From Saccharofermentans sp. (lineage in GTDB: Bacteria > Bacillota_A > Clostridia > Saccharofermentanales > Saccharofermentanaceae): a stretch of 55,383 nt of DNA. This document shows, piece by piece, positions 3,001 to 16,109 of this stretch. The notes beneath the pieces were generated by a model, which saw only the letters and a list, made by a program, of their open reading frames with translations, searched no databases and was not told where the DNA came from. A program made the position numbers and the translations under genes. Numbering within the stretch: the first letter of the stretch is position 1; every line of letters begins with the position of its first letter. The DNA lies in contig JAILMZ010000152.1 in assembly GCA_024692105.1 (NCBI GenBank), positions 1 through 55,383 of the forward strand. The letters run 5' to 3'.

Positions 3001-3091
3001 CACGGCTGGTTCGAACGTCTCGCAGACGGATGCGCTGCCTGCTGAAACGACGCCGACAGAGCAGGAGCCTGAGCAGTCGCAGGAAGGTTGA
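2..3091 (+). CDS. GLUG-repeat surface protein, 5' end missing
   Basis: The reading frame is open from base 2, so the gene begins before the window. About the first 450 residues are GLUG-like repeats, with recurring YVGGAIG, VGGIIG and VGGFIG cores every 40-60 residues. A middle region of beta-rich text follows, then an InlB/Listeria-Bacteroides-type repeat (near residue 800: EGYTLNDWYMDGDC and LYAGWT), and an immunoglobulin-like segment with a YQWY core. The tail is a low-complexity linker of TDPTDPTDPTDS and TTET type. There is no LPXTG sorting signal or C-terminal membrane segment, so the mode of surface attachment is unclear. GLUG and InlB-type repeats are known from secreted adhesins. It sits just upstream of the pilus operon but has its own terminator, so a link to the pilus is only inference. 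Confidence 0.75.
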   Translation, partial: VTGTSYVGGAIGDMQSAVGESLASGSDTITANVTGSVTGTGEYVGGAIGRVNASINGNIIASVNSPITGHDYVGGLIGQYAGGTFNGTINNNTFNPISVSGTSNVGGIIGNFSNGTLNGGINNITYNSISVSGTNNNVGGIIGSFSNGTINGGISAIINSSSVTGTSGIGGAIGSMTGGTLNAGVTVELNSTSVKGRSAIGGAVGDFSGGSINGGSVTVAINNGTIIGDATNESRCINAGGAIGQMTSSAKVGNGKVAVTIEGSGVVNAGGTDGNTSTGVGGAIGVLGSSGGGVNPVFGNANENELISYISVYCESPDASVISASSPVGGAVGTMLSGSIYRSYSTVAVSGQDYVGGFIGNMVAGRVDHTYVGGHTIDGGHYSDDSLNVTGRTYVGGFIGYAGSGVATTDYIKMCYSTASVGGSSFVGGFIGRSDITANDVFNATYCTGLVCDLSGSNDSSIGAYAGYIAYADSFNTANYGNKVLRGINVVNEVERWGISGNSIPVAANRLNFAPYTETEFGPQYIRANNPNCIYNGHPFDSNLPNGSNSYPYRCYLCVQLTGDIYRGEHYGDWPIVGESSLEDITSASLTITMEDVVHGPYTNGSMSDITLPYRYGSAITIPGAFTITLSDGTVLNSENYEIFYDNNTYASDTAKVTAYGIRRQRYIGSVEVGFTITPIMFNDQEFTVDDAQREFTFALDNGDQMRVTINNLASDNQYVCNGNDTNSNRPGVTLTYINNGTPTNIPATDYTVTYTGNNIFSGDATITIAGNGTRWSNTSTVIVNYHIRSPLVTLHTNYDADTETTLPVQFNTALTAASEYSEPVREGYTLNDWYMDGDCTQVFTGVVKSDLTLYAGWTIIPATAPTIDPITHDEDGHTISVMAQTIEGQELTYQWYFNTSNTTEGGTAIDGATEETYDYSGTATEAGTYYYYCVVTATRTDNGESAYKASDVISVTVSGTDPTDTTDPTDPTDPTDSTDPTETTNTSETSAESTEPTESTAGSNVSQTDALPAETTPTEQEPEQSQEG

Positions 3092-3834: not shown

Positions 3835-5031
3835 ATGCCGGAATACAGATATCAAGCACAGGACAGTAAAGGCAAGATAACGACGGGTAAAGCGGAAGCC
3901 GCTGACATGGCGGATCTTCAGAGGCGTTTCCATGACTCCGGGCTCCTTCTTCTTGATGCTAAACCCATAGTAAAACAGATGAATCTGAAGGTTTTGAAGA
4001 AACCGCAGCTTGCGGACTTCTGCCGTCAACTCGGAACTTTAACGAAAGCAGGTGTTACGCTCGTAAAAGCTATCGAGATAGTTTCTAATGATGAGGCTGT
4101 TACTGATTATGAGAGGCAGCTTTATATAAGGCTTCGTGACCGTATAGTACAAGGTATCGCGCTGTCAAACGCGATGGAGGAATTGGATCCGGCGTTTCCG
4201 CCTCTTCTCATCTTCATGATAAGGGCAGCAGAGACTTCCGGTACTCTTGATACCACATGTTTGCGTCTTGCCGATATGTACACGAGCGAGGCTCAAATGG
4301 AGCAGACCGCGAAAAACTCGCTTACTTATCCTAAGATCCTGTCGGTGCTCATCGTGGCTGTTGTTGCTATCCTTTTCGGATATGTGCTGCCGCAGTTTGA
4401 GGACATGTTCTCGTCGATGCCGTCGCTTCCAATCACGACGAGGATCCTTATGGGCATCTCGAATTTTGTGGCGACCAAATGGTATATCCTTATCATTGCC
4501 GTCATCCTTATAGTTGTTTTCGGAAGGATAATTAAGAAGATCCCGATAGTTGCGTACAACATCGATAAGATCAAGTGTAAGGGTAAGTGGGGCAAGCTTA
4601 TGAAGGTAATCTACTCTGCCAGATTTGCCCGCACCATGAGCTCTTTGTATTCGTCGGGTATCCCGATCTACAACTGTATACAGATTTCGCGCGGAACCAT
4701 AGGCAACAAGTACATCGAGGCACAGTTCGACGAGGTCGAGAGACAGGTCTCGGGTGGATCTTCGGTATCGAGCTCGATCCAAAATGTCGACGGCTTCGTA
4801 AGCAAGCTTCCGTCAACGATCAAGATCGGTGAAGAGACAGGTATGTTAGGACCTATGCTCGAGTCCGTAGCGAATGATTTGGACTTCTATTCCAGACAGG
4901 CGCTCCTGCGTCTGACCTCATATATTGAACCTGTAATGATCGTAGTAATGGCAGTGATAGTTGGCTTCATCATGATCTCCATAATCCAGCCGATCTATCA
5001 GTCCTACTCAACTATCGGCGCAGGCTCGTAA
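3835..5031 (+). CDS. pilC: Type IV pilus inner-membrane platform protein PilC (GspF family)
   Basis: The 398 residues match the usual length of PilC/GspF proteins. The N-terminus MPEYRYQAQDSKGK is typical. Two duplicated T2SSF domains are visible: the first begins near FCRQLGTLTKAGVTLVKAIEI (about residues 60-185) and the second near FARTMSSLYSSGIPIYNCIQI (about 260-385). Three membrane segments lie at about 165-190, 205-230 and 365-390. In the family this protein anchors the PilB and PilT motors and transmits their motion to the growing pilus. It is second in the operon, and its stop is 18 bases before the pilM-like gene. The start ATG follows GGAAGG. Confidence 0.93.
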   Translation: MPEYRYQAQDSKGKITTGKAEAADMADLQRRFHDSGLLLLDAKPIVKQMNLKVLKKPQLADFCRQLGTLTKAGVTLVKAIEIVSNDEAVTDYERQLYIRLRDRIVQGIALSNAMEELDPAFPPLLIFMIRAAETSGTLDTTCLRLADMYTSEAQMEQTAKNSLTYPKILSVLIVAVVAILFGYVLPQFEDMFSSMPSLPITTRILMGISNFVATKWYILIIAVILIVVFGRIIKKIPIVAYNIDKIKCKGKWGKLMKVIYSARFARTMSSLYSSGIPIYNCIQISRGTIGNKYIEAQFDEVERQVSGGSSVSSSIQNVDGFVSKLPSTIKIGEETGMLGPMLESVANDLDFYSRQALLRLTSYIEPVMIVVMAVIVGFIMISIIQPIYQSYSTIGAGS

Positions 5032-5049
5032 AGAAAGGAAACCATACAA

Positions 5050-6531
5050 ATGTCTGAAGTAGTATTTCTGTCAAATACCAACATACAGATAGCTGTCGGC
5101 ACTCCGACATCGGGCGGTGTCAAAGTAAGCAAGCTGTATCAGGCTCCTCTTCCCGAGGGTGCTGTGCTTAACGGCGTCGTTATGGATAAGGACTTAGTCA
5201 TCCAGACCATCAAGACTGCATGGCAGATGAATAAGATACCGAAGTCTGAAGTGACGCTCATTATCAACAGTCCGCAGCTTAGAGCTTCGCATGTGGATGC
5301 TCCGATTCTGAAGGACAAGAAGACAACGGAATTCATCGCAAGAGAGACGGCCGATTCCGAGTATGGCAGATTCCAAAATCCTATCACCGGCTGGTATGTT
5401 GTATCGAAGGATACCAAGACAAAGACCCAGAATGTAGTCTATGAGACGGCTGAAGAGGTCTTCGTAAAGACTTATGTTGATATATTTGAGAAGGCCGGGC
5501 TTAAACTTAGATCCATACATAACGGCGTACAGCTCGCAGTACAGTATTTTACGAAGGCGTCTTCAGGAAAGACCTTGATCTATATGATTATGGATGGTAC
5601 GTCTCTCGTTACTATCTTCTTTGCAGAGGGTAAGTACTACTACGATTCTACGTCTCGTATATTCTCCGAAGTAGGAACGCCTGAGTTTGCCCGTGAGATA
5701 TATCAGTCTATTTCCTCTATAAGGCAGTTCATATCTGCTCAGCATCTGACGGAAACTGTAAGTGATGTCGTGTTTGCAGGTCTGACGCAGCCTCAGGTCT
5801 CAAGTCTTGCAAATGATATTTTGAACATAGACAGCCAGGTGGATATCTCACTTGTGCAGGCACCGCAGGGAACATCAATATCCGAAGGAAATGCGGCTTT
5901 CCCGTTCTATGTTTATCCTATCGCGGGTATAAAGAAGCTTGATGAGCGACTTCCTATCATGAAGGCAAGCCGCCAGAACAAAGCGGTCAGATCCGGCAAT
6001 TCCGGAATGATCAAGGTGATTGCATTTTTCGCGATCATACTTGCAATAGCAGGTATTGCTTTCGGTATCGTTATGGCTATCAAAGCCTCGAAAAAGGCTG
6101 AGCTAAAGAAGATCGAGGACTACATCAACGATCCCGAGGTCATAGCTTCGGTTGCCGAGTATGATGCTATGTATAACAACATGGCAGAGATGGGTACGAT
6201 CCAGGGCGGAGTAAATCTGCTGATTGAAGATATTAATTCCTATCCTATACCGGATTCGACAGTTAATCAGAAGATAAACGAGGCTGCTTTGGCGCATGAT
6301 GTTACAGGAGAATTTGTCTCGTACAGTGCGAGCACAGGAGTATTCACCATAACGGCATCATCACCTGAAGTTGACGATATCAATATGTTTATCGCTGATC
6401 TTATGGCGATGGACATCTTTGAGAGCGTCGACTATACGGGATATACGCATTCGACCGACGGCTCCTCATGGCAGATCAACGTCGTCTGCACACTTGCGGC
6501 ACGAGATACCGCTGAGCAGGAGGTGAACTGA
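5050..6531 (+). CDS. PilM/PilN-like fused pilus alignment protein
   Basis: The first ~300 of 493 residues look like the actin-fold cytoplasmic protein PilM: an N-terminal strand hugging nucleotide, IMDGTSLVTIFFAEG as the second phosphate-like loop, and the PilM-style EVFVKTYVDIFEKAGLKLRSI. A basic stretch, a membrane helix at about 317-340 and a ~150-residue periplasmic-type domain with coiled start follow, which is the architecture of PilN. In most bacteria PilM and PilN are separate proteins joined through the PilN N-terminus; here one polypeptide seems to do both jobs. The gene is flanked by pilC and the PilO-like gene, with 1 base before the latter. The domain assignment is by pattern, so the exact boundary is uncertain. 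Confidence 0.75.
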   Translation: MSEVVFLSNTNIQIAVGTPTSGGVKVSKLYQAPLPEGAVLNGVVMDKDLVIQTIKTAWQMNKIPKSEVTLIINSPQLRASHVDAPILKDKKTTEFIARETADSEYGRFQNPITGWYVVSKDTKTKTQNVVYETAEEVFVKTYVDIFEKAGLKLRSIHNGVQLAVQYFTKASSGKTLIYMIMDGTSLVTIFFAEGKYYYDSTSRIFSEVGTPEFAREIYQSISSIRQFISAQHLTETVSDVVFAGLTQPQVSSLANDILNIDSQVDISLVQAPQGTSISEGNAAFPFYVYPIAGIKKLDERLPIMKASRQNKAVRSGNSGMIKVIAFFAIILAIAGIAFGIVMAIKASKKAELKKIEDYINDPEVIASVAEYDAMYNNMAEMGTIQGGVNLLIEDINSYPIPDSTVNQKINEAALAHDVTGEFVSYSASTGVFTITASSPEVDDINMFIADLMAMDIFESVDYTGYTHSTDGSSWQINVVCTLAARDTAEQEVN

Positions 6532-6532
6532 T

Positions 6533-7414
6533 ATGGCAAAGTTCGAGACTAACCTAAATCAGAAGGATAAGGCTACGATAGTCGGTCTGCTTGCTTTCGT
6601 GGGAGTGTTCATGTTTGTATGGTTCGGCATAAGGCCTGCCATCAATGACATCAAATCACTGAATGACGACATAGATCATGCGCAGACAATAGAAGCACAG
6701 TACAGGAACAAGATAATCAATCTTGCAAGTGCAGAGGCGATTTACGACAGATCCGTGACAGATCTTAATGAGTCCACTGAAGAGTTCTATGAGAAGATGC
6801 CAAGCTCAAGTATCGATCGCATGATGACAAGTTATGTTTTGGGATTCGGGTTATATCCTGAGGATCTGTATATCACGATGCCGTCGGGTCCTGTTGAGGA
6901 GACTCCTTACATCTATTCTCAGGCTATGGAGAGACAGGTTAGTGCCATCGTAGAGTCAGTGGCACCTACACCTACACCGACAGTGGTATCTACCGGATTG
7001 TCAGGAAGTTCGGCTTCTTCTGAAGAGTCAAGCTCGGATACTAACAGCTTCGCCGCTGATACTCAGGTAGACAGTCTCCTTACACCATATACCGATGCAA
7101 TGAATTCGGCTATATCGACACAGTCTTCCGGTATCGAGGCTGTCGATATTACTATGGTAATGACAGGATCTCCCGAAGTGTGTCAGGCTCTTATTGATGA
7201 TCTTTGTACGAAGCCGTCAGTCAGATTAACGGGCTTCATCTGGTCCAAGTTGGAACAGATCGAGCAGTTCAATGAAGAGACAGGTGAGACAGTGCTTGTA
7301 GATTCGGATATGGTAAGACTTCAAGTCGACCTGAGACTATACATGGCGGACATCACTGACTACGAGGCATCAGTTGCCGAAGCGGTTGAAGCTGCGGCTG
7401 TCACAGAGGAGTAA
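6533..7414 (+). CDS. PilO-like pilus assembly protein
   Basis: The 293 residues have a short cytoplasmic start (MAKFETNLNQKDKATIVG), one membrane helix at about 16-36, a coiled coil (about 40-90) and a C-terminal mixed alpha/beta domain. That is the layout of PilO, which pairs with PilN outside the membrane. A low-complexity Ser/Thr/Pro linker (about 145-175) splits the outer domain, which is unusual for PilO. The ATG lies 1 base after the stop of the PilM/N fusion, and pilB starts 5 bases after its own stop, so translation is probably coupled. The call rests mainly on topology and gene order. Confidence 0.7.
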   Translation: MAKFETNLNQKDKATIVGLLAFVGVFMFVWFGIRPAINDIKSLNDDIDHAQTIEAQYRNKIINLASAEAIYDRSVTDLNESTEEFYEKMPSSSIDRMMTSYVLGFGLYPEDLYITMPSGPVEETPYIYSQAMERQVSAIVESVAPTPTPTVVSTGLSGSSASSEESSSDTNSFAADTQVDSLLTPYTDAMNSAISTQSSGIEAVDITMVMTGSPEVCQALIDDLCTKPSVRLTGFIWSKLEQIEQFNEETGETVLVDSDMVRLQVDLRLYMADITDYEASVAEAVEAAAVTEE

Positions 7415-7419
7415 AGGAT

Positions 7420-9105
7420 ATGGCAGATAATTCAAAGATTCGTATAGGAGATCTGATGGTCACGGCGGGCTATATCACCGAGGACCAGCTTAAGGAAGCT
7501 CTTTCAATACAGAAGCAACAGGGCGGCAAGAGAATAGGTCAGACTTTGATCGATCTGGGTTACGTTACCGAAGTCCAGATGCTTATGGCGCTTGCTGACA
7601 GACTTGATATGCAGCTTATCGATATCGCATCCTACCAGATTGATTCGGAAACTGTTAAGCTCATTCCGAAGCAGATGGCAGAGCAATATCTGATGCTTCC
7701 CATCGAGCAGGACAGCGGCGTAGTTATAGTAGCCGTTAACGATCCTTTGAACCTGTATGCGATCGAGGATATCAGGCAGACTATCGGTATGCCCGTAAAG
7801 ACGGTGATCGCAGAAGAGCAGCCTTTGAAGGATGCCATCGACTATCAGTATGCAGGTATCAAGGCCAAATTGGCGGCCGAGAATGCGAATGCAAATACGA
7901 CTGGCATGAACATCGATGAACTTGTTATCGATACTTCTGCAGGTGCTGATGACGCACCTATCATCAATCTTGTTAACTCGCTTCTCGATAAGGCTTTCCA
8001 GGATAACGCTTCCGATATTCATATCGAGCCCTTCGAGACAAACGTAGTAGTAAGAATGCGTATCGACGGTACGCTTATCGATTACATCACTTTGCAGAAG
8101 AATGTTCAGGACTCACTTGTTGCCCGTATCAAGATCATGGGTGACATGGACATTGCAGAGCGCCGTATCCCGCAGGACGGACACTTCCGTGTCAGGATTC
8201 AGGGGCAGATCGTAAATATCCGTGTAAATGTCATTCCGACCGTATTCGGCGAGAAGGTCGTTATGAGACTTATCTTGTCGGCGGTAAACATCGACAACAA
8301 CACTACCTTTGGTATGGATGAGGATTCTTACAAGAAGTTTTCGAACATGCTCATGTCACCTAACGGACTTATCTATATCACGGGTCCTACGGGCTCCGGT
8401 AAGTCCACGACTTTGTATATGGCTCTCGCTTCGCTGTCACAGAAGCCTATTAACATAAGCACTATCGAGGACCCTGTAGAGAAAAACCTTCCAAGGTTGA
8501 ATCAGGTACAGGTGCATCCTACTGCAGGACTTACCTTCGAGGTTGGCCTTCGTGCTCTTATGCGTCAGGACCCCGATGTCATCATGGTAGGTGAGACACG
8601 TGATGCCGAGACTGCTGCCATCTCAATAAGAGCTGCTGTAACTGGACACCTCGTCCTCTCGACATTGCACACGAACGATGCGGCTTCTACTATCGTAAGA
8701 CTCATCGATATCGGTGCCGAGCCTTACATGCTCTCATCTGCACTGGTAGGTGTCGTAGCACAAAGACTCATGCGTAAGGTTTGTCCTTATTGCGCACGCG
8801 AAGAGGGCCTTACCGAGAGGCAGATCGAGTTCGTCGGCTACGATATCCCTCATGCCAAGAAGGCGGTCGGATGCAGTCAATGTCACGGTTCCGGATACCT
8901 GGGACGTACCGCGATACATGAAGTGCTCGCTGTAGATAAGACCATGCGTAAGATGATCGCAGACGGCGCTGAGGCTGAAGAAATGAAAGCATATGCCATT
9001 AAGAACCAGAACATGCAGACGCTTCGCATGGCTGCCTTAAAGCTGGTCGAAAAGGGTATCACAACCATGGAAGAACTAGAGCGCGTTGCTTACAATGACG
9101 ACTGA
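7420..9105 (+). CDS. pilB: Type IV pilus extension ATPase PilB with tandem MshEN-type c-di-GMP-binding motifs
   Basis: The 561 residues form a full GspE/PilB ATPase. The N-terminal domain carries two copies of the MshEN pattern 30 residues apart: RIGDLMVTAGYITEDQL from residue 8 and RIGQTLIDLGYVTEVQM from residue 38. The ATPase core shows Walker A GPTGSGKST (about 326-334), an Asp box around STIEDPVE, Walker B MVGETRDAETA, and a His box LVLSTLHTNDA. A four-cysteine zinc site (CPYC and CSQC) follows at about 449-488, as in PilB/GspE. The protein drives pilus extension. The two MshEN motifs suggest direct c-di-GMP control; a phosphodiesterase gene lies 4 kb downstream. Confidence 0.95.
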   Translation: MADNSKIRIGDLMVTAGYITEDQLKEALSIQKQQGGKRIGQTLIDLGYVTEVQMLMALADRLDMQLIDIASYQIDSETVKLIPKQMAEQYLMLPIEQDSGVVIVAVNDPLNLYAIEDIRQTIGMPVKTVIAEEQPLKDAIDYQYAGIKAKLAAENANANTTGMNIDELVIDTSAGADDAPIINLVNSLLDKAFQDNASDIHIEPFETNVVVRMRIDGTLIDYITLQKNVQDSLVARIKIMGDMDIAERRIPQDGHFRVRIQGQIVNIRVNVIPTVFGEKVVMRLILSAVNIDNNTTFGMDEDSYKKFSNMLMSPNGLIYITGPTGSGKSTTLYMALASLSQKPINISTIEDPVEKNLPRLNQVQVHPTAGLTFEVGLRALMRQDPDVIMVGETRDAETAAISIRAAVTGHLVLSTLHTNDAASTIVRLIDIGAEPYMLSSALVGVVAQRLMRKVCPYCAREEGLTERQIEFVGYDIPHAKKAVGCSQCHGSGYLGRTAIHEVLAVDKTMRKMIADGAEAEEMKAYAIKNQNMQTLRMAALKLVEKGITTMEELERVAYNDD

Positions 9106-9679
9106 CAAGTCTTCTTTGCACAAACTGATCACAGATCTTAAAAGCGTGCCGTCGCGGGTGTTTTACATCTTCGCGGCGGTTGCTGTTTTCTGTTGCTTCT
9201 TTGTTATGGGGCCAAGCCCGTATTCTGTCTTTTTGTCTTTGTTTTTGCTGGCTCTGGTGGCATGTGCCGCAGCTGACATCAATGCCGGGATCGTCCCGGA
9301 CCTTATTGTTGCATTCATAGCCTTGCTGGGAATTGCCGACATCCTGTTTATCGACGGAGTAGGCTTAGTTGCCGATCACCTTATAGGGGCGGTATGTGTT
9401 TCGGTGCCTATGCTGGTTTTGTCCCTGGTCGTTAAAGGTGCATTCGGAGGCGGTGATATTAAGCTTGTGGCGGCTGCGGGTCTTTTAATGGGATCACGGC
9501 CTGTTGCTGCAGGTGTTTTCCTCGGGATGTTCATATCAGGATTTTATGCCGCCTATCTTCTCATCCTCCGCAAGGCGGGTTCGAAGTCAAAGATCAAACT
9601 GGTACCGTTCCTTGCGGTCGGACTCTCGGTCGCGGTCCTGTTCGAGAATTATATATTGGATTACATTGTAAGATTCTAA
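9095..9679 (+). CDS. pilD: Prepilin peptidase, short A24 form
   Basis: An aspartic membrane protease of the A24 family with several membrane helices. The two catalytic aspartates are visible in AADINAGIVPD and in GGGDIKL. The N-terminal cysteine-containing methyltransferase domain of full-length PilD is absent, so N-methylation of mature pilins is not predicted from this protein. It would cut the leaders of the pilins at 12668, 15774, 16114 and 40331 (G before F, E or V, with E at +5). I prefer ATG 9095 to the TTG at 9086. The gene overlaps the end of pilB by 11 bases, so it is the last member of the operon. Confidence 0.88.
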   Translation: MTTDKSSLHKLITDLKSVPSRVFYIFAAVAVFCCFFVMGPSPYSVFLSLFLLALVACAAADINAGIVPDLIVAFIALLGIADILFIDGVGLVADHLIGAVCVSVPMLVLSLVVKGAFGGGDIKLVAAAGLLMGSRPVAAGVFLGMFISGFYAAYLLILRKAGSKSKIKLVPFLAVGLSVAVLFENYILDYIVRF

Positions 9680-9681
9680 GA

Positions 9682-9721
9682 TAAAAATGCACCCGCCTTT
9701 TCTGACGGGTGCATGTCTTTT
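9682..9721. terminator. Bidirectional terminator between pilD and the SPFH gene
   Basis: A 9-bp stem ATGCACCCG/CGGGTGCAT (9687-9695 and 9706-9714) has a T-rich run on the + side and an A run before it, giving a T run on the - strand. It serves both convergent genes. Confidence 0.85.
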
Positions 9722-9736
9722 ATAGGAAGCATATGA

Positions 9737-10648
9737 TTAACCTTCTTCGGATTCCTCAACGGGTGCGGGTGTCGGGATAACAGCATTCTCAGACATGCTT
9801 CCCATATCGATCATAGGAATGATGCCGTTATCTTCACCTGTCTGGATCATAGGGAGTCTGCCGTCCCATCTGCTGATAGTCTCGTATTGGATGATGTTGG
9901 GCGTTAAGGACTCTTCCCGTACTGCGTTTGCTTCAGCTTCTGCTTCAGCCGCGATCAGCATGGCGTCTGCTTCGGCCTGTGCTGATGTTCTTGTTACAGA
10001 AGCCTGTGCTTCCGCCTGCTCTATTGCTCTTTGATTCTCTATCTGCTGTGTTTGATAGCGGATCTGTGCTGCCTGCTGCTCGGCAATGACTTCGTTATAG
10101 GAGTCTTCGTAATCGGCGTTGTTGACGACTACCTTTATTATCGTGATAGTATCCTCACCATACTTTTCATCAACCGAAGCCTGTAAAGCCTGCGCGATAG
10201 CAGGTTCAATGATGCCTCTGTTAGTAGCATCGATAGAGTTGTACTGCTTGGCAGCTGTCTTCACTGCGGAAGATACAAAGCTGCTTGTAAGAAGCGTGTG
10301 CTCGTAATCGTAAACATTAGCCACCAGCCAGGAAGAACGACCCTCATTGATGCGGTAAGTAATATTGATACCCTCATAATAAAGTGCGGTACGCTCGCTG
10401 GTCTCACTCCATATCTGTCCGTCGATCACGACATCCTGCTGCTTGTTGTTAACAAGACGCACATTCTCGATGAACGGGATCTGAAGTGCAATGCCGGATT
10501 GGATATTCTCCGAGCTTACCTGTCCGAATCTTACACGGACACCGGTGTACCCCGTGGGAATGATCTTAAATGATTTCATAGCAAGCACCAGTACAGCGAT
10601 GATAACGACAAATGCTACCACCCACTTCTTAGAAAACTTATTCTTCAT
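9737..10648 (-). CDS. SPFH/prohibitin-family membrane protein
   Basis: A 303-residue protein with one N-terminal membrane helix (about residues 8-26), then an SPFH/Band 7 domain (IIPTGYTGVRVRFGQV to about residue 190) and a long Ala/Glu-rich coiled coil (about 185-250: AEAQASVTRTSAQAEADAML). The last ~50 residues are polar. This is the prohibitin/HflK-HflC-like arrangement; in the family such proteins form membrane microdomain scaffolds. The start is set at ATG 10648, because the in-frame ATG 15 bases upstream overlaps the AGGAGGG ribosome site at 10653-10660. It has its own promoter and no operon partners, and a role in pilus assembly is not evident. Confidence 0.85.
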   Translation of the reverse strand: MKNKFSKKWVVAFVVIIAVLVLAMKSFKIIPTGYTGVRVRFGQVSSENIQSGIALQIPFIENVRLVNNKQQDVVIDGQIWSETSERTALYYEGINITYRINEGRSSWLVANVYDYEHTLLTSSFVSSAVKTAAKQYNSIDATNRGIIEPAIAQALQASVDEKYGEDTITIIKVVVNNADYEDSYNEVIAEQQAAQIRYQTQQIENQRAIEQAEAQASVTRTSAQAEADAMLIAAEAEAEANAVREESLTPNIIQYETISRWDGRLPMIQTGEDNGIIPMIDMGSMSENAVIPTPAPVEESEEG

Positions 10649-10677
10649 AACAACCCTCCTCATTAATACTGAGGGTA

Positions 10678-10683
10678 ATTATA
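10678..10683 (-). promoter_or_regulatory. Candidate -10 element of the SPFH gene
   Basis: TATAAT on the reverse strand lies 30 bases before the chosen start codon. No convincing -35 is visible at 16-18 bases. The rest of 10684-10908 shows no gene that I can support; it contains an odd GC-rich patch at about 10740-10835. Confidence 0.4.
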
Positions 10684-10908
10684 CATTAGTGGGTATCACT
10701 CTCCTGTTAAGAAAAGGTAAAGTTGGTTATGGCCAAAGTTTTGTGCGGCGCGGCAGCCTGGTTGGTTACTTTTGGGGCGTGCGGGTCTGGCTTGCTTGCT
10801 TTTTTGGGCACGTGGCCCCGGTCTGCTTGCGGTTTTTAAAATTTTAGAAATCCGCAATGAAAAACAGCATCCACATGCTAACGGAGATTCTCTTCCCGGA
10901 TTCTTAAA

Positions 10909-10945
10909 CTCCCGCGCACGAAAAAGCCGGGGACGAATCCCCGGC
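10909..10945 (-). repeat. 37-bp outer inverted repeat, left copy, with terminator of the silent pilin
   Basis: A perfect reverse-complement copy of 13169-13205. It contains the stem GCCGGGGA/TCCCCGGC with an A run that is a T run on the reverse strand, so it acts as the terminator of the silent pilin cassette. Identity stops at the edges of these 37 bases: the DNA between the stop codon and the terminator is unrelated in the two copies. Confidence 0.95.
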
Positions 10946-10986
10946 TTTCTTTATTCTGTTAAGTACTATCTAGTCTAGAATGACAA

Positions 10987-11412
10987 TTAAGCAGTTGCTG
11001 CTGTCCATACAGGCTGACCATTTGTTATGGTAAGTGTATAAGTGCTTGTCTTAGTTCCATTTTTGATTGTGACAGAACCACCAGTAATGATATATGTTGT
11101 AGTATCAAAATTGAAAGAAAAGGCTGTAACTATATTTTTGTCTACTCCGGCAAGATCCCATACATTCTCACCATATTTAATCGTCTGATCACCATGTACA
11201 ACAGTGGTAGCTTGTGTTAAAGGAGAGGTAGCACTTCCTTCTCTACCATAAATATCGGTTATAACTGCCTGTGCTGCTGCATATACAGTAGCTGCCGTCT
11301 GATATTCCTTCTCTTCTCTTGCCCTCTTGATATATCCTGTCAAAGCAGGTACCAACATAGCTGCCAAGATAGCGAGGATAACGAGAACTACGATAAGTTC
11401 AACTAATGTGAA
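10987..11412 (-). pseudogene. Silent, leaderless major-pilin cassette
   Basis: On the reverse strand these bases encode 141 residues of a mature type IV pilin: FTLVELIVVLVILAILAAML, the spine ALTGYIKRAREEKEYQ, then a variable C-terminal body ending in WTAATA. There is no prepilin leader. The open frame runs back only to an ATG at 11436 (MLICCNGQ before F), which overlaps the stop of the recombinase gene and offers neither the basic leader nor the Gly at -1 needed for cleavage. No promoter of its own is visible. The first 114 bases are identical to the expressed pilin; after that the two diverge in sequence but have nearly equal length (141 versus 143 residues after the cleavage site). I interpret it as a stored alternative pilin. 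Confidence 0.85.
11299..11412 (-). repeat. 114-bp inner inverted repeat, left copy
   Basis: A perfect reverse complement of 12701-12814, checked base by base. It encodes residues +1 to +38 of the mature pilin. Both ends are sharp: the first base outside each end differs between copies. Confidence 0.97.
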
Positions 11413-11435
11413 CTGACCGTTACAGCAAATGAGCA

Positions 11436-12393
11436 TTACTCCTCATATATCGCCCTCGCCAACATCCGGTTGGCTTTTCGCTGCGCTTCCTCATTTGCGT
11501 GGCTGTAAACGTTCAATGTGATCGCGGCAGATGAGTGTCCGAGCTTACGGCTTACGCTGACGATATCAGCTCCGTGAGCAATACTGATTGTCGCCATGCT
11601 GTGGCGGAGACGGTGCGGGTGGAAATCATCGATGCTATATCGTTTGCCCCAGACTCTGAATAATGAAGATAACGTTGACGGGTTTAGGACGCCGCCTTTG
11701 GAGTTAGTGAAACAAAAGCCGGTTCGAGCAAGTCCACTTAGCCTGCTCCTTTTCCCACGTGCGCATCACATCAAGTGCATGTGGATTAAGGATGATCTTA
11801 CGGGCCTTGCCGCTTTTGGTGGAGAGTATCCTTACACCCTCGCGAGGAAAGTACTGCGCGTTATTGCGAACTGTCACTTCACCAGTCGCAAGATTTATGT
11901 CGTCCCAAGTGAGCCCGCAGACTTCGCCGCGCCTGCAGCCGCTGTCGGTCATGAAGTAAACTGCACATTTATACATAAGCCTCTCACGCTCCATGCACCT
12001 TAAGATGTGTCTGATCTCAACTTCCGTATACGCTTTGCCCGAGTCCTACGCATCATCCTTGCGTCTCATCGGCTTTTTCATGCCTTGCATGGGAGAGTTG
12101 CAAATGATGTCATCTTCAGCCGCCGCGCGAAAAACATTACGCAGCATATCAAAATGTAAACAGACAGTACTGTATTTATATATATCTTGCAGCTCTGACA
12201 TGTATGACTTAACCATACTCTTTGTAATCTCGCAGATGAGCAAGCCGTCCCACCTATCCGCGGCACGCCTCAAAACTTGCCGGTAAGACAGGATAGTGTT
12301 TCTCGATCTCGTCCTGCTGATCTGTTCCAGAAATGTATCCGAGTATTGAGTGAATGTGAGCCATTTCTTCCTTGTTAATAACGTTTTTAACAT
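11436..12393 (-). pseudogene. Tyrosine recombinase, interrupted by one stop and one frameshift
   Basis: Read across frames, this is a complete ~318-residue phage-integrase-type recombinase. It has an N-terminal SAM-like DNA-binding domain (MLKTLLTRKKW to about residue 115) and a catalytic domain with Arg in SGCRRGEVCGL, Lys in STKSGKARKI, HRLRH, LGHSS, and Tyr in LNVYSH. Two lesions break it: an in-frame TAG at 12046-12048 and a one-base insertion near 11704-11710 (the total length of 958 bases is 3n+1). The start ATG at 12393 has an AAGGAGG site. The stop lies 23 bases from the inverted repeat. All catalytic residues survive, so the lesions are recent or are sequence errors. Inside the pilin switch it is the obvious candidate for the recombinase that inverts it. 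Confidence 0.85.
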
Positions 12394-12421
12394 AATCGTT
12401 CCTCCTTCAGTAAGTACCACG

Positions 12422-12427
12422 ACTATA
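12422..12427 (-). promoter_or_regulatory. Candidate -10 of the recombinase gene, with a nearby dyad
   Basis: TATAGT on the reverse strand lies 29 bases before the recombinase start; no clear -35 is seen. Next to it is a dyad: AATTCC (12431-12436) with GGAATT (12459-12464), and CGAGAAA (12438-12444) with TTTCTCG (12464-12470). It could be a regulatory or accessory recombination site in the divergent control region. Confidence 0.35.
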
Positions 12428-12562
12428 GTTAATTCCTCGAGAAACGGTTTACTTATTCAGGAATTTCTCGTTCACAAATAGCATTCGATTTACGGTTTTG
12501 AAACAAACACACGAGGTAGATTAACAAAATTTTAAGGTGTTGTTAATTGTGCCTCAGTGCCC

Positions 12563-12591
12563 TTGAAATAGGTTTTTTCGCAAGGTATAGT
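12563..12591 (+). promoter_or_regulatory. Strong promoter of the expressed pilin
   Basis: TTGAAA at 12563-12568 and TATAGT at 12586-12591 are separated by exactly 17 bases. The expected leader RNA is about 70 bases. It contains a 7-bp stem CAAACGA/TCGTTTG (12605-12611 and 12622-12628) close to the 5' end, which may stabilise the transcript, and an AAGGAGGA ribosome site at 12653-12660. Confidence 0.8.
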
Positions 12592-12667
12592 TCAAGCATA
12601 GCAACAAACGAAAGCAATCTATCGTTTGAAAATACTCTACTTAATAATAATGAAGGAGGAAAGAACA

Positions 12668-13132
12668 ATGAAAAGAGTTGGAAAGTCATCTAAAAGAGGT
12701 TTCACATTAGTTGAACTTATCGTAGTTCTCGTTATCCTCGCTATCTTGGCAGCTATGTTGGTACCTGCTTTGACAGGATATATCAAGAGGGCAAGAGAAG
12801 AGAAGGAATATCAGGCAGCTTCAACAGTTTATGCAGCAGTTCAGGCTCTTTCTACAGAGTGGTACGGTACAGGATCCAATGATAAGTTTAAGATTACGGA
12901 AGTTGAGAAGCTTACAGGGTTGGATATAAATGCGATTGGTTATTACCGAGTTGCTGAAGGATCTGGAACAGGCGGTGCTGATCCTGACAACGTGGGAGCA
13001 ATCCAAGCAATAGCTATTCAGTTTACAGATGGTGGCAGTTGGTATACTTTCGCTCCCGGTACAGTGTCTTGGGGTACTACAACAGGAGCTATGCCTTCAG
13101 TTGGTGGTAAGACATTGACAGCAATGACATAA
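12668..13132 (+). CDS. pilA: Expressed major type IV pilin
   Basis: A prepilin of 154 residues. The leader MKRVGKSSKRG is short and basic, cleavage follows Gly11, and the mature protein starts FTLVELIVVLVILAILAAML with Glu at +5. The helical spine ALTGYIKRAREEKEYQ follows, then a variable globular part rich in Gly, Thr and Ser with no cysteine pair. The start ATG is favoured over upstream in-frame codons by the AAGGAGGA site at 12653. It has its own strong promoter and terminator and stands apart from the assembly operon, as expected for a highly expressed structural subunit. Its first 114 mature bases are identical to the silent cassette at 11299-11412. Confidence 0.93.
   Translation: MKRVGKSSKRGFTLVELIVVLVILAILAAMLVPALTGYIKRAREEKEYQAASTVYAAVQALSTEWYGTGSNDKFKITEVEKLTGLDINAIGYYRVAEGSGTGGADPDNVGAIQAIAIQFTDGGSWYTFAPGTVSWGTTTGAMPSVGGKTLTAMT
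12701..12814 (+). repeat. 114-bp inner inverted repeat, right copy
   Basis: A perfect inverted match to 11299-11412. It starts at codon +1 (Phe) of the mature pilin and ends inside codon +38. It has no mismatch even at synonymous positions, whereas the sequence beyond it diverges at once, which points to recent exchange rather than selection on protein alone. Confidence 0.97.
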
Positions 13133-13168
13133 GGTGTTGTTGTAGATAAAAAAGGAATAGTATTCCGA

Positions 13169-13205
13169 GCCGGGGATTCGTCCCCGGCTTTTTCGTGCGC
13201 GGGAG
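13169..13205 (+). terminator. Terminator of the expressed pilin, within the 37-bp outer inverted repeat (right copy)
   Basis: GCCGGGGA, a TTCG loop, TCCCCGGC, then five T. The 37 bases are the exact reverse complement of 10909-10945, so the two pilin cassettes mirror each other at their outer ends as well. Confidence 0.95.
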
Positions 13206-13267
13206 AGTGCTTGAAGGGGGAAGGGGCGTAAAATATAAGTAGCAGGCAAGCGCACGATCTGATTAAC

Positions 13268-13366
13268 TTGACGGGATACAATGCCTGCGGGCAGGGGTTC
13301 TATCTAACGCCGGATCTTGAGTTCTCAAGAAGATGGGCGAAGAAGAATCATTCCAACGCGAATTAA
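13268..13366 (+). pseudogene. Possible remnant of a DUF3990-type gene
   Basis: Frame 2 reads CGQGFYLTPDLEFSRRWAKK and then stops. This resembles the G-x-G-F-Y-L-T ... A-x-x-W-A segment of DUF3990 (ADP-ribosyltransferase-like) proteins. There is no start codon, ribosome site or rest of domain. The remaining DNA between the pilin terminator and the EAL gene shows nothing else. Confidence 0.3.
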
Positions 13367-13400
13367 CAAAGGTGCTGGAGAGCTTTCAGTAAAAGATATA

Positions 13401-15005
13401 TCAGGAGTCGACCACTAAAGTTGCGGAACCGTAGAGCTTTAGCGGTTTGCCGTTCTCGTCGTACTCGGTTGTGTAACGCACATGGAAAGGAACGCGTCCG
13501 ACCGTAAGAGGAATTATATCTTCAGCGGTGCCGCAGCCAGCGATAAGATCGTCAAGCATTTTCCTGTACATGTCTGCATAATCGGGAGGGAATATTCCTT
13601 CCTCGATAGCAGGCTCGGGATAGTTCTTAACAAGAGGCGGAAGATGCAGGTCTCTCATGCATCTGAAGCAAGGCCTCATATCCCGTGTAGCGACGTCGAC
13701 TTCCCAGGCATAGACATTGGCATGCTCGAAGGCCTGTTTGAATTTTGCCTCGTTCTCAAGAAGTCCTTCCAGGTAGCTCTTCTCAGAGGTGATATTTTTT
13801 ACCATGGAATAGAAAAGATATTTCTCGCCGGCACGGCCTATGAGCCTTATCGAGTTTTCTACACAAACAAGCTCTTCTCCGCATATTGAAGTGCATATAT
13901 TGGACCATGTCTCGCAGCTCTCCTCGTCGCCGCTTTCTATCGCACGAAGTATCATGTCCTCAAATATCTCGTGATTTTTCTCATCGTAAACGCGCCACGG
14001 ATCATTACCGAAGATATCCTTTTCGTTGCGTCCCATGCCAACTTCTTTTATATACTTCTTGTTGACACGCTGTATCTCCATACTGCCGTCAGTCTTATCG
14101 TAGACAAACAATGCCGCGGGTCCCGCGAAGTTGCTGAAGATCAATGTTTCCATAGATTCGGGGTTCCAAAATCTCCCCGAGTCGAGCACATTTATCAAAG
14201 AGAGCGATGTGTTAAGCGGCTCGTGCGTTACCGTCTGAATATATTCGAGGAAATCATCCTCGGTGCTTGGTATGGAGTAAAGGTAGCCCTGAATATAGTT
14301 ACAGCCGATGCTCTTTAGGTAATCCGCCATCTCGATGCTCTCGACACCTTCGGCGATTACGGGTGTATCGAGCCACTTTGCCATCTGGACTATCGAGCTT
14401 AAGATGGTGCCGCCACGTCCGCCAATGTCACCCTTGATGAATATCATGTCAAGCTTGATGATATCCACCATGAGATCTTTCAGGATATTAAGGGATGAGT
14501 AGCCGCTGCCGAAGTCATCCATCTCAACGAGGTACCCCAGTGAATGTAATCTGCTTATGACGGATGAGACGAGCTCCATGCCCCCAATGGCAGACGACTC
14601 GGTAACCTCGATGCGAAGGTACTTGACCGGGATATGATACTTCTTGCGTATCGCTTCTATCGTGTCTATATAGTTATTGTTGTAAATGTCGTAACGCGAC
14701 ATGTTTACTGATATCGGCATGAGACTGAACCCCTGGTCCAGACATCTTCGCTGAAACCTGCACACCATCTCGAAAAGGTACACATCAGCATTATAGATGA
14801 GACCGTTTCTCTCCATGGCGGGGATAAAATCCGAGGGGGACTGTGGTCCGAACTCGGGGTCGTTCCAACGCATCAACGCCTCAGCGCCGAGCATCCTGCC
14901 CGTTGTATGATTGATCTGGGCCTGATAGTTTACAAATATATGTCCGTCTGAAAGAGCCTGATCAAATCTGCTTACCAGTTCGGCATCTGTCATCTTTCTG
15001 TCCAT
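13401..15005 (-). CDS. EAL-domain cyclic-di-GMP phosphodiesterase
   Basis: A 534-residue soluble protein. Residues ~10-255 form an EAL domain with the catalytic signature intact: EALMRW, ISVNMSR, RIEVTESS, MDDFGSGYSSLN, IIKLDM, EGVES and IQGYLYS. It should hydrolyse c-di-GMP to pGpG. The C-terminal half (about 290-534) looks like two PAS-like sensory modules (FVYDKTDGSMEIQRVNKKYIKEVG, and the last ~110 residues). No GGDEF domain or membrane helix is present. The gene sits on the reverse strand between the pilin switch and the minor pilins, and PilB carries c-di-GMP-type motifs, so a role in tuning pilus activity is a reasonable inference. The ATG at 15005 follows AAGGGG. Confidence 0.92.
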   Translation of the reverse strand: MDRKMTDAELVSRFDQALSDGHIFVNYQAQINHTTGRMLGAEALMRWNDPEFGPQSPSDFIPAMERNGLIYNADVYLFEMVCRFQRRCLDQGFSLMPISVNMSRYDIYNNNYIDTIEAIRKKYHIPVKYLRIEVTESSAIGGMELVSSVISRLHSLGYLVEMDDFGSGYSSLNILKDLMVDIIKLDMIFIKGDIGGRGGTILSSIVQMAKWLDTPVIAEGVESIEMADYLKSIGCNYIQGYLYSIPSTEDDFLEYIQTVTHEPLNTSLSLINVLDSGRFWNPESMETLIFSNFAGPAALFVYDKTDGSMEIQRVNKKYIKEVGMGRNEKDIFGNDPWRVYDEKNHEIFEDMILRAIESGDEESCETWSNICTSICGEELVCVENSIRLIGRAGEKYLFYSMVKNITSEKSYLEGLLENEAKFKQAFEHANVYAWEVDVATRDMRPCFRCMRDLHLPPLVKNYPEPAIEEGIFPPDYADMYRKMLDDLIAGCGTAEDIIPLTVGRVPFHVRYTTEYDENGKPLKLYGSATLVVDS

Positions 15006-15131
15006 GTTAAGGTCCCCCTTGGGCAGTCTTAATCAAATATTAACATGCGAGGCGGATGATATGTTATTGTACTTGATTGTTTACGGACTTTTGAATAATT
15101 GTTCACAGAACGTAACGCGGGAAATGTTGAA

Positions 15132-15317
15132 GTAAAAAGCCGTCGAGGTTAAAATTAAAGTAGATTCGGAAATAGGCTTATTTCTGCGCTCACCGGTTAT
15201 TTCAGAAAGGCAAGAAGAGCCAGAGCCTTCCATATGGCGGATGAAGCCCGCGTTGCTGCAACAGCGATTATGCTTGAGCGTTACGCTATGAACAGCGAGG
15301 GGCATTACGGGTTTTAA
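15132..15317 (+). pseudogene. Probable remnant of a third pilin gene
   Basis: Frame 3 reads VKSRRG, two stops within four codons, then LISALTGYFRKARRARAFHM and a further ~30 residues up to a stop at 15317. KSRRG resembles a prepilin leader, and ALTGYFRKAR matches the ALTGYIKRAR spine of the expressed pilin. The hydrophobic segment is missing or scrambled, and there is no usable start codon. It ends three bases before the next minor pilin. The rest of 15006-15131 contains nothing I can support. Confidence 0.4.
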
Positions 15318-15319
15318 AA

Positions 15320-15772
15320 ATGAGAAGAGTAAATAAGACATCATTATCTTCCAGGACGTCGGTTCTCCTTCGCGGTAACGAAGGGACCAGTCTTGTTTTG
15401 GTATCGATAATAGCAATAATCGTTATAACAGCGGTTATTGTTCTTCGAATATCCACAAGCGCACTTTGGGCGTCTGCAGATAAGCAGGTATATCAGGATC
15501 AGGCATACGAGCTTGCAACGAGTATGGGTGAGTCGGTAGATACGCTTATCGGTAAAGGGAAGATCAATCTGTCGTCCATTTGCACGGATGATGACATTCA
15601 TCAAATAGCAGCTGACAGCAATACCGGGATACCCAATTCCGATATTGCCGTGACTGTACGTCTCAACGGAGATCTTTATGAGGTTGTTACGACTGCTCAT
15701 GTGGCCCGGGCAACTTATGTCTATACAGCAACCTACAAAGGGTCGGGAACCTCATATACAAGGCAGTACTGA
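15320..15772 (+). CDS. Minor pilin-like protein, PilX type
   Basis: 150 residues: a basic start, then RGNEGTSLVLVSIIAIIVITAVIVL as a single membrane helix (about residues 18-42), an amphipathic helix (ADKQVYQDQAYELATSMGESVDTLI) and a small beta domain. The position and length of the hydrophobic part fit a minor pilin, but the Gly before TSLVLV is not followed by Glu at +5, as is also true of PilX-like proteins. No strong ribosome site is seen before ATG 15320. It starts a run of three genes (15320, 15774, 16114) with 1 and 4 bases between them, a typical minor-pilin operon. Confidence 0.65.
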   Translation: MRRVNKTSLSSRTSVLLRGNEGTSLVLVSIIAIIVITAVIVLRISTSALWASADKQVYQDQAYELATSMGESVDTLIGKGKINLSSICTDDDIHQIAADSNTGIPNSDIAVTVRLNGDLYEVVTTAHVARATYVYTATYKGSGTSYTRQY

Positions 15773-15773
15773 T

Positions 15774-16109
15774 ATGAAGACCAGACATAAGACATTTGGC
15801 ATAAGGAACAAAAAGGGCGAGACGATGGCGGAAGTTCTCGTTGCATTTACTTTGCTGTCGATAATGCTTGTAGTCTTTGCTCAGGGAATCGCGTGGGCGT
15901 CCAGGTCTGAGGTTAATGCGACCAACAGCAGGAATTCCGCGGATACCGGGATGAGGGAGCTTCAGGAAGATATAGCGAACGGTAATTATGGTGCGCGTCA
16001 ACCGGATGCAGTTACTGTGAATGAGAATGCGAAGATAGATCGTTGTGTGAGCACACATGAAGGACATGTATATGTAGTATATTTGCCTTCTTCATCTTCA
16101 GGCGGGTGA
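15774..16109 (+). CDS. Minor pilin (prepilin-type leader)
   Basis: 111 residues. The leader ends in RNKKG and the mature protein starts ETMAEVLVAFTLLSIMLVVF, with Glu at +5, so it is a substrate for prepilin peptidase. The globular part is short (about 75 residues). ATG 15774 lies one base after the stop of the previous gene. A longer in-frame opening exists upstream but overlaps that gene and would bury the leader. It is likely part of the tip or priming complex with its neighbours. Confidence 0.8.
   Translation: MKTRHKTFGIRNKKGETMAEVLVAFTLLSIMLVVFAQGIAWASRSEVNATNSRNSADTGMRELQEDIANGNYGARQPDAVTVNENAKIDRCVSTHEGHVYVVYLPSSSSGG

What the first reader, a model, noticed from the sequence alone, without database searches (positions are those of the whole stretch)
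10909..13205. A candidate pilin inversion switch driven by a 114-bp inverted repeat
Seen: an expressed pilin (+, 12668-13132) and a silent pilin body (-, 10987-11412) share a perfect 114-bp inverted repeat that begins at codon +1 of the mature protein. The only promoter (TTGAAA-17-TATAGT), ribosome site, start codon and leader lie inside the 1288 bases between the repeats, together with a tyrosine recombinase gene. Inference: flipping 11413-12700 would join the leader in frame to the silent body and give a 152-residue alternative pilin with a different surface. Known parallel: pilin inversion in Moraxella uses Piv, an unrelated recombinase. A leader-and-promoter flip with the recombinase carried inside the invertible piece is, as far as I know, not described for clostridial pili.
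Basis: partly seen in the sequence, partly recalled or inferred. Interest (0 to 1): 0.95.

Follow-up and report, generated by a model that had tools for sequence, protein, structure and literature searches.

The report
Clostridial pilin inversion switch, possibly frozen
A bacterium related to rumen Clostridia appears built to swap the main building block of its type IV pili by flipping a DNA piece that carries the gene's start, a layout we did not find described for such pili, although the flipping enzyme is broken in this copy.

Summary
A perfect 114-bp inverted repeat (38 codons) joins an expressed type IV major pilin (body E) to an intact leaderless body (S) on the other strand. Promoter, ribosome site, start codon, leader and a tyrosine recombinase lie between the repeats. 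Flipping 11413-12700 gives a 152-aa pilin in frame.

New here: (1) The recombinase is broken in this copy (in-frame TAG plus frameshift), so this strain may be locked. (2) Relatives carry one major pilin at the same place with the same promoter; E and S fall in two classes of that gene, and S keeps 28 of 28 conserved body positions. (3) Two other contigs, known only through protein records with equal longest-contig lengths, pair an intact relative of the recombinase with a pilin: one has a similar leader on an S body, the other an E body without leader. Flipping predicts such states. (4) The recombinase lacks an N-terminal stretch that 113 of 120 listed homologues have.

Best reading: a leader-and-promoter inversion switch between two major-pilin alleles, run by a domesticated integrase, perhaps frozen here. 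No DNA showing both orientations in one species was reachable. New variant of a known kind.

The parts
12668..13132 (+). expressed type IV major pilin, body E (154 aa; leader MKRVGKSSKRG, mature from F at 12701)
   Evidence: PF07963 1.5e-9; TIGR02532 above its cut-off
10987..11412 (-). silent pilin body S from F+1 (141 codons and stop), no processable leader
   Evidence: open frame; 28 of 28 conserved columns kept; model mean pLDDT 88.1
11299..11412 (-). repeat arm in the silent body, codons 1-38 of the mature pilin
   Evidence: perfect 114-bp inverted repeat
12701..12814 (+). repeat arm in the expressed pilin, codons 1-38
   Evidence: perfect 114-bp inverted repeat
11413..12700 (.). proposed invertible segment (crossover anywhere in the arms gives the same product)
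   Evidence: flip simulated on the window gives an in-frame 152-aa chimera
11436..12393 (-). tyrosine recombinase, broken: TAG at 12046-12048, frameshift about 11734-11765
   Evidence: pieces hit PF13102, PF02899 and PF00589; tblastn with P0241, 73% and 81%
12563..12591 (+). pilin promoter TTGAAA-17-TATAGT
   Evidence: most hexamer bases kept in 0.81-1.00 of 32 relatives' upstream regions, two -35 bases in only 0.66 and 0.31; by consensus count alone not above shuffles
12653..12659 (+). ribosome-binding site of the pilin
   Evidence: bases kept in 0.91-0.97 of 32 upstream regions
12668..12700 (+). start codon and prepilin leader, inside the invertible segment
   Evidence: sequence
11413..11436 (-). 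substitute N-terminus MLICCNGQ on the silent side; ATG overlaps the recombinase stop (TAATG); Q, not G, at -1
10909..10946 (.). outer repeat arm with terminator-like hairpin after the silent body
   Evidence: perfect 38-bp inverted repeat; scan lists the hairpin on the + strand only
13168..13205 (.). outer repeat arm with terminator-like hairpin after the expressed pilin
   Evidence: perfect 38-bp inverted repeat; not listed by the scan's rule, my reading
3835..9679 (+). pilus assembly genes (PilC-, PilM-, PilN-, PilB- and PilD-like)
   Evidence: PilB-like and PilC/GspF-like best NCBIfam matches, below equivalog cut-offs; same gene order in relatives

Best explanation
This is a two-state inversion switch of the major type IV pilin. 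SHOWN: the promoter, ribosome site, start codon and leader sit on a 1288-bp segment between two perfect 114-bp repeats that encode residues 1-38 of the mature pilin; the two bodies lie outside, in opposite directions, each followed by the same hairpin; either orientation gives one complete in-frame pilin. INFERRED: a tyrosine recombinase carried in the segment recombines the repeats and so swaps the exposed part of the pilin while the leader, peptidase site and N-terminal assembly helix stay the same. The recombinase descends from mobile-element integrases and has lost an N-terminal stretch that I take to be their arm-binding domain. In this copy it is disrupted, so the strain is probably locked in state E, recently, or switches only through another recombinase or homologous recombination.
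For: Anatomy and frame. The silent body keeps 28 of 28 body columns that are at least 85% conserved in 39 S-class hits; dN/dS against 9 relatives 0.12-0.54. Shared codons: 0 of 27 synonymous sites differ, against a median of 48% between relatives. The promoter and leader region is the relatives' major-pilin promoter. In 10 of 19 loci examined PilD and the downstream minor pilins flank one major pilin. E and S fall in different halves of the body tree, each with other species' pilins. P0241 (74%, intact, same ends as the window's gene) and P0133 (leader 10 of 11 identical, 38 of 38 repeat residues identical, S-class body) share longest-contig length 21735 and sources; P0246 (60%, intact) and P0003 (123 aa, E-class body, no leader) share 45985 and source. 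Two equal lengths above 10 kb against 0.045 when lengths are jittered. Window recombinase, P0241 and P0243 form a clade without the N-terminal stretch (99/97); 113 of 120 listed homologues have it.
Against: The recombinase is broken here. No DNA or reads with both orientations in one species. The linked contigs were not seen as DNA: same-contig status and the order of their genes are inferred. P0133's leader is not rare (5 of 238 listed pilins have exactly it). A third length match, 4510 (P0247, P0030), is probably chance, as the sources differ. No recombinase site found in the repeat: best dyad reached by 139 of 200 shuffles. No close recombinase in 115 family, 188 order or 391 class genomes. 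dS is near saturation; the tree rests on 116 columns.
Confidence: 0.75

Rival explanations
1. Locked relic: the switch worked in the ancestor, but since the recombinase broke, body S is dead DNA and only E is made.
For: Two separate lesions in the recombinase. In plasmid TP114, deleting the shufflase left a single variant (passage, PMC9045228).
Against: The repeats are still perfect and S is open and conserved, so locking would be recent. In pneumococcus, inversions at long repeats (85 and 298 bp) go on without the local recombinase PsrA (passages, PMC4948785).
Confidence: 0.45
2. Gene-conversion cassette: body S is a silent donor that overwrites E through the shared 114 bp and the shared 3' hairpin, as in neisserial pilS/pilE (recalled); the recombinase is an unrelated insertion.
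For: Perfect identity at both ends of the bodies is what conversion leaves; the recombinase is broken.
Against: A conversion donor needs no inverted order with promoter and leader between. Relatives of the same recombinase appear on contigs with pilins.
Confidence: 0.12
3. No switch: an inverted duplication of the pilin beside a decaying mobile element, the bodies later diverging or one being replaced.
For: Broken integrase-like gene; its nearest listed homologues mostly have the extra N-terminus of element integrases and one lies in an IMG/VR contig.
Against: Both bodies intact, each in a long-standing class; synonymous sites homogenised only in the repeat; two other contigs with the same pairing.
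Confidence: 0.1
4. Assembly artefact: two strains' pilins joined through the repeat.
For: The window is one record with no genome held; perfect repeats invite misjoins.
Against: The bodies differ, so it is no fold-back; partner proteins occur on other contigs from other sources.
Confidence: 0.05

Closest known systems
Moraxella bovis / M. lacunata pilin inversion (Piv)
   Same: Inversion switches between two type IV pilin genes (passage in PMC4073114; Marrs 1988 seen only as a reference)
   Different: Piv is of the IS110/DEDD kind (recalled); the window's enzyme is PF00589. Which parts lie inside the Moraxella segment I recall only: the pilin bodies, with the promoter outside, the reverse of this layout
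Shufflon of I-complex plasmids (Rci, PilV)
   Same: Tyrosine recombinase, pilin gene with constant N-terminus and exchangeable C-terminal part (passages, PMC9045228)
   Different: Minor adhesin pilin PilV, several cassettes at the 3' end, short sites; here the major pilin, two bodies, and the 5' end moves
Mycoplasma vsa / vpma lipoprotein inversions
   Same: Promoter is added to silent genes by site-specific inversion (title in the reference list of PMC11868660; HvsR named as a tyrosine recombinase in PMC4948785)
   Different: Lipoproteins, many silent genes, recombinase not between two bodies (recalled)
hsdS inversions of Streptococcus pneumoniae (PsrA)
   Same: Inverted second gene copies sharing long repeats (85, 298 bp), tyrosine recombinase in the locus (passages, PMC4948785)
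   Different: Swaps the downstream part of a DNA methylase subunit, not leader and promoter
Salmonella Hin flagellar switch
   Same: Recombinase gene inside the invertible segment (passage, PMC5903667)
   Different: Serine recombinase, promoter only, no protein fusion (recalled)

Membership tests
Type IV pilin | prepilin leader with G-1 and N-methylation helix | tested here: met
   PF07963 37.4 bits (cut-off 21.2) for the expressed gene; silent frame 19.7 bits, below cut-off, as it lacks the leader
Tyrosine recombinase | Phage_integrase catalytic domain | tested here: met
   PF00589 1.1e-11 and 4.6e-16 on two of the three pieces
Tyrosine recombinase | intact open frame in this copy | tested here: not met
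   TAG and frameshift
Arm-binding-domain integrases (mobile elements) | extra N-terminal domain before the core-binding domain | tested here: not met
   window: no trace of P0242's first 92 residues at E<=1. That this stretch is an arm-binding domain is inference: no Pfam arm-binding model hit
XerC/XerD | score above NCBIfam equivalog cut-off | tested here: not met
   P0241 85.1 of 329.6 and 83.2 of 335.15 bits
Piv-type pilin invertase | IS110/DEDD recombinase | tested here: not met
   three pieces hit only integrase families at E<=0.01
Shufflon (Rci) | several cassettes swapping the 3' end of a minor pilin | tested here: not met
   one segment, two bodies, 5' end moves
DNA inversion switch | both orientations in one population | not testable with these tools
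   no reads, no genome of this record
DNA inversion switch | inverted repeats flanking, in-frame product both ways | tested here: met
DNA inversion switch | identified recombinase core site | tested here: inconclusive
   no dyad above shuffles

The most novel reading that the evidence does not exclude
A mobile-element integrase that lost its N-terminal accessory stretch was captured between two alleles of a clostridial major pilin and now flips promoter plus leader between them, in several related species; natural allelic classes of the pilus subunit are thus stored and exchanged inside one chromosome. Some copies, such as this one, have since been frozen by loss of the recombinase.
Probability: 0.55. 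Interest if true: 0.75.

Novelty: new variant of a known kind. Interest (0 to 1): 0.62.

Why it matters
Major-pilin switching by DNA inversion is, to my knowledge, described only for Moraxella (recalled; nine open-library searches, showed no clostridial case). Here the enzyme is of another class and the moving part is the promoter and leader. In the relatives examined the pilus machinery is conserved while the pilin body differs widely between species; a switch holding two of these classes suggests that pilin surface variation itself is selected, for example by phages, hosts or substrates (speculation). The recombinase clade gives a simple search handle.

Tried and rejected
Rejected or empty: a dyad-type core site in the repeat; an attachment-site link between the repeat and ten IMG/VR loci with related integrases, where shared words (9-12 nt) are about the shuffled range of 8-14; none of those ten loci has a pilin-motif frame. 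PDB fold searches gave no match at E<=0.001 for either pilin model. Rfam gave none in 9000-16000. The idea that G056's twin contigs were two orientations failed: they are collinear, 94% identical variants. The hairpin was absent from 109 loci by an exact pattern. IMG/VR pilin scans gave only remote pilins or none. The promoter scan alone was no better than shuffles, 3 found against 5.1. An empty whole-genome answer for the recombinase carries the tool's own warning that it shows nothing without a positive control; one search did find remote integrases (8 of 115 genomes at 1e-20, 24-36% identical).

Rows dropped: tree used the first 40 of 120 hits of each list, minus 7 S hits that failed a motif match, and 31 of the 32 fetched family pilins (one minor pilin left out; one genome counted twice). 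One search used 39 of the 119 other S hits and 9 relatives for dN/dS. One search used 32 of 120 recombinase hits, two fragments left out. One search included one minor pilin among its 32. One search's contig lengths (36, 41, 38) were typed by hand from the listings and a few may be missing.

Full report
WHAT IS THERE. The window carries a type IV pilus cluster: PilC-, PilM-, PilN-, PilB- and PilD-like genes on the + strand from 3835 to 9679, then an SPFH (HflK/C-like) gene on the - strand, the region of the finding, an EAL-domain gene on the - strand (13401-15005), and minor pilin-like genes from 15320 on. The finding is a perfect 114-bp inverted repeat, 11299-11412 and 12701-12814. It covers codons 1 to 38 of the mature pilin. 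On the + side it belongs to a complete prepilin (12668-13132, PF07963). On the - side it begins a body of 141 codons without a prepilin leader. A whole-window scan for inverted 30-mers found 94 seeds, which is this repeat (85) plus the outer 38-bp pair (9) and nothing else.

FLIP. Inverting 11413-12700 in a script joins the leader in frame to the silent body and gives 152 residues; the other body then receives the substitute start MLICCNGQ, which has Q, not G, at -1 and so should not be processed (the need for glycine is established knowledge). The promoter TTGAAA-17-TATAGT lies at 12563-12591. As a consensus match it is worth little (3 found, 5.1 expected), but most of its bases recur in the upstream regions of 32 relatives' pilins: -10 bases in 0.81-1.00, -35 bases in 0.94-0.97 except the fourth (0.66) and the sixth (0.31). 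So this is the family's major-pilin promoter and it sits on the segment.

THE RECOMBINASE IS BROKEN. Its start (ATG at 12391-12393, with AGGAGG upstream) and end (TAA, 11436-11438) align with the ends of an intact homologue, P0241, at 73% and 81% over the two matched stretches. Between them the window has an in-frame TAG (12046-12048) and a frameshift near 11734-11765. All three open pieces hit integrase domains. It means that the switch in this record is probably locked, unless the record is a poor consensus or another enzyme acts. Precedents point both ways: deleting the TP114 shufflase left one variant (passage, PMC9045228), but pneumococcal hsdS inversions at long repeats continue without the local PsrA (passages, PMC4948785).

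IS THE SILENT BODY ALIVE? It is open throughout; it keeps 28 of 28 body columns that are at least 85% conserved in 39 S-class hits; dN/dS against nine relatives is 0.12 to 0.54, with dS near saturation. In the 38 shared codons the two copies differ at 0 of 27 synonymous sites, while 465 pairs among 31 relatives' pilins differ at a median of 48% and at least 10.5%. So the repeat has been homogenised and body S was expressed for most of its history. AlphaFold models of both proteins have mean pLDDT 88.1 (S) and 87.2 (E), with a long N-terminal helix and a following sheet; PDB fold searches gave nothing significant.

RELATIVES. No genome is held for the window. A scan with the PilM-like protein found one relative, L001, a water-buffalo rumen MAG titled Clostridiales bacterium, 68% identical. 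In its family 38 of 115 genomes matched the region at DNA level. In 10 of 19 loci examined, PilD and the minor pilin matching the window's 15320 frame lie on one locus with a single major pilin between them; several also have a larger second pilin there. None of the 115 genomes has a recombinase closer than 36%, none of 188 order genomes matched P0241 at 1e-40 and none of 391 class genomes matched the alignment at 1e-60. A tree of the bodies puts E and S in different halves (94/94): the E half holds 6 of the 31 family rows; the S clade (45 rows, 95/91) holds 12. The alternatives in this switch are thus two classes of body that other species carry singly. The tree rests on 116 columns and many forks are open.

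THE SAME PARTS ELSEWHERE. In the large protein set the best recombinase hit is P0241, 323 aa, 74%, intact. Its longest contig is 21735 bases, sources ncbi and lgn. Pilin P0133 has the same longest contig and sources: a leader differing by one residue from the window's, the 38 repeat residues identical, then an S-class body. P0246, 60%, intact, longest contig 45985, source ena, matches P0003: an E-class body, 78% to the window's, with no leader. So one relative joins a similar leader to S, and the other holds E without leader. Equal lengths above 10 kb number two where jittered lengths give 0.045. Limits: this is inference from protein records; gene order and repeats there are unseen; the leader is shared by 5 of 238 listed pilins; a third equality at 4510 bases, P0247 and P0030, has differing sources and is probably chance.

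ORIGIN OF THE ENZYME. Of 120 listed homologues 113 match the first 92 residues of P0242; the seven that do not include P0241, P0243 and P0246 and two fragments. The window has no trace of that stretch at E<=1. Window, P0241 and P0243 form a clade (99/97) inside a group of eight (100/100) that includes four with the stretch; P0246 is unresolved, so one or two losses. An IMG/VR contig carries a full-length relative, 62% to P0241. I take the lost stretch to be an arm-binding domain, as in the two-group scheme of PMC8138268 (passages), but no Pfam arm-binding model matches it, so that name is an inference.

MECHANISM. Most likely a recombinase expressed from the segment recombines the two repeats, so that promoter and leader face either body; only the body facing them makes a processed pilin. 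The recombinase message can run on into the silent body (TAATG overlap), but its product would lack the peptidase site. I put 0.75 on such a switch in this lineage, and about even odds that this copy is now locked. The core site is unknown.

KNOWN OR NEW. Pilin inversion is known from Moraxella (passage, PMC4073114) with a different enzyme class (recalled). Tyrosine recombinases switch PilV ends in shufflons (PMC9045228 passages), hsdS parts (PMC4948785 passages) and C. difficile promoters (PMC5903667 passages). A recombinase inside the segment is known for Hin (same passage). Nine searches of an open-licence library showed no clostridial pilin switch; Chanin et al. 2024 on intragenic inversions (recalled) was not held. 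Hence: a new variant of a known kind.

Noticed in passing
10909-10946 and 13168-13205: Outer perfect 38-bp inverted repeat with identical hairpins after both bodies; a flip of the whole unit between these would leave expression unchanged. Exact hairpin pattern absent from 109 fetched loci.
   Followed up: partly
12438-12470: Inverted arms CGAGAAA / TTTCTCG upstream of the recombinase start, possibly an operator; not tested against chance.
   Followed up: no
11434-11438: TAATG overlap: the recombinase stop overlaps an ATG in frame with the silent body, which could give an unprocessable pilin-like protein by coupled translation.
   Followed up: partly
L001 90-8144; window 41-3091: Giant frame (2684 aa in L001) with a prepilin N-terminus, followed by many similar glycine-rich repeats, at the start of the pilus cluster; the window holds only a part at its edge. 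A giant pilin-adhesin is my guess.
   Followed up: no
7420-9105 and 13401-15005: PilB-like ATPase with an MshE-type cyclic-di-GMP-binding domain (NF053729, 66.7 bits, cut-off 38) and an EAL phosphodiesterase-like gene in the same cluster.
   Followed up: no
L050, L053, L051 and others: Neighbouring genes stay up to 97% identical between species while the major-pilin body at the same place is of quite different classes.
   Followed up: partly
L013 (G034) and P0002: The same 11-residue leader MKKITSKSKKG stands before an S-class body in G034 and before an E-class body in P0002 (945-base contig).
   Followed up: partly
L055, L056 (G056): Two nearly collinear 3.4-kb contigs, 94% identical, in one genome bin, probably strain variants whose pilins differ.
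   Followed up: yes
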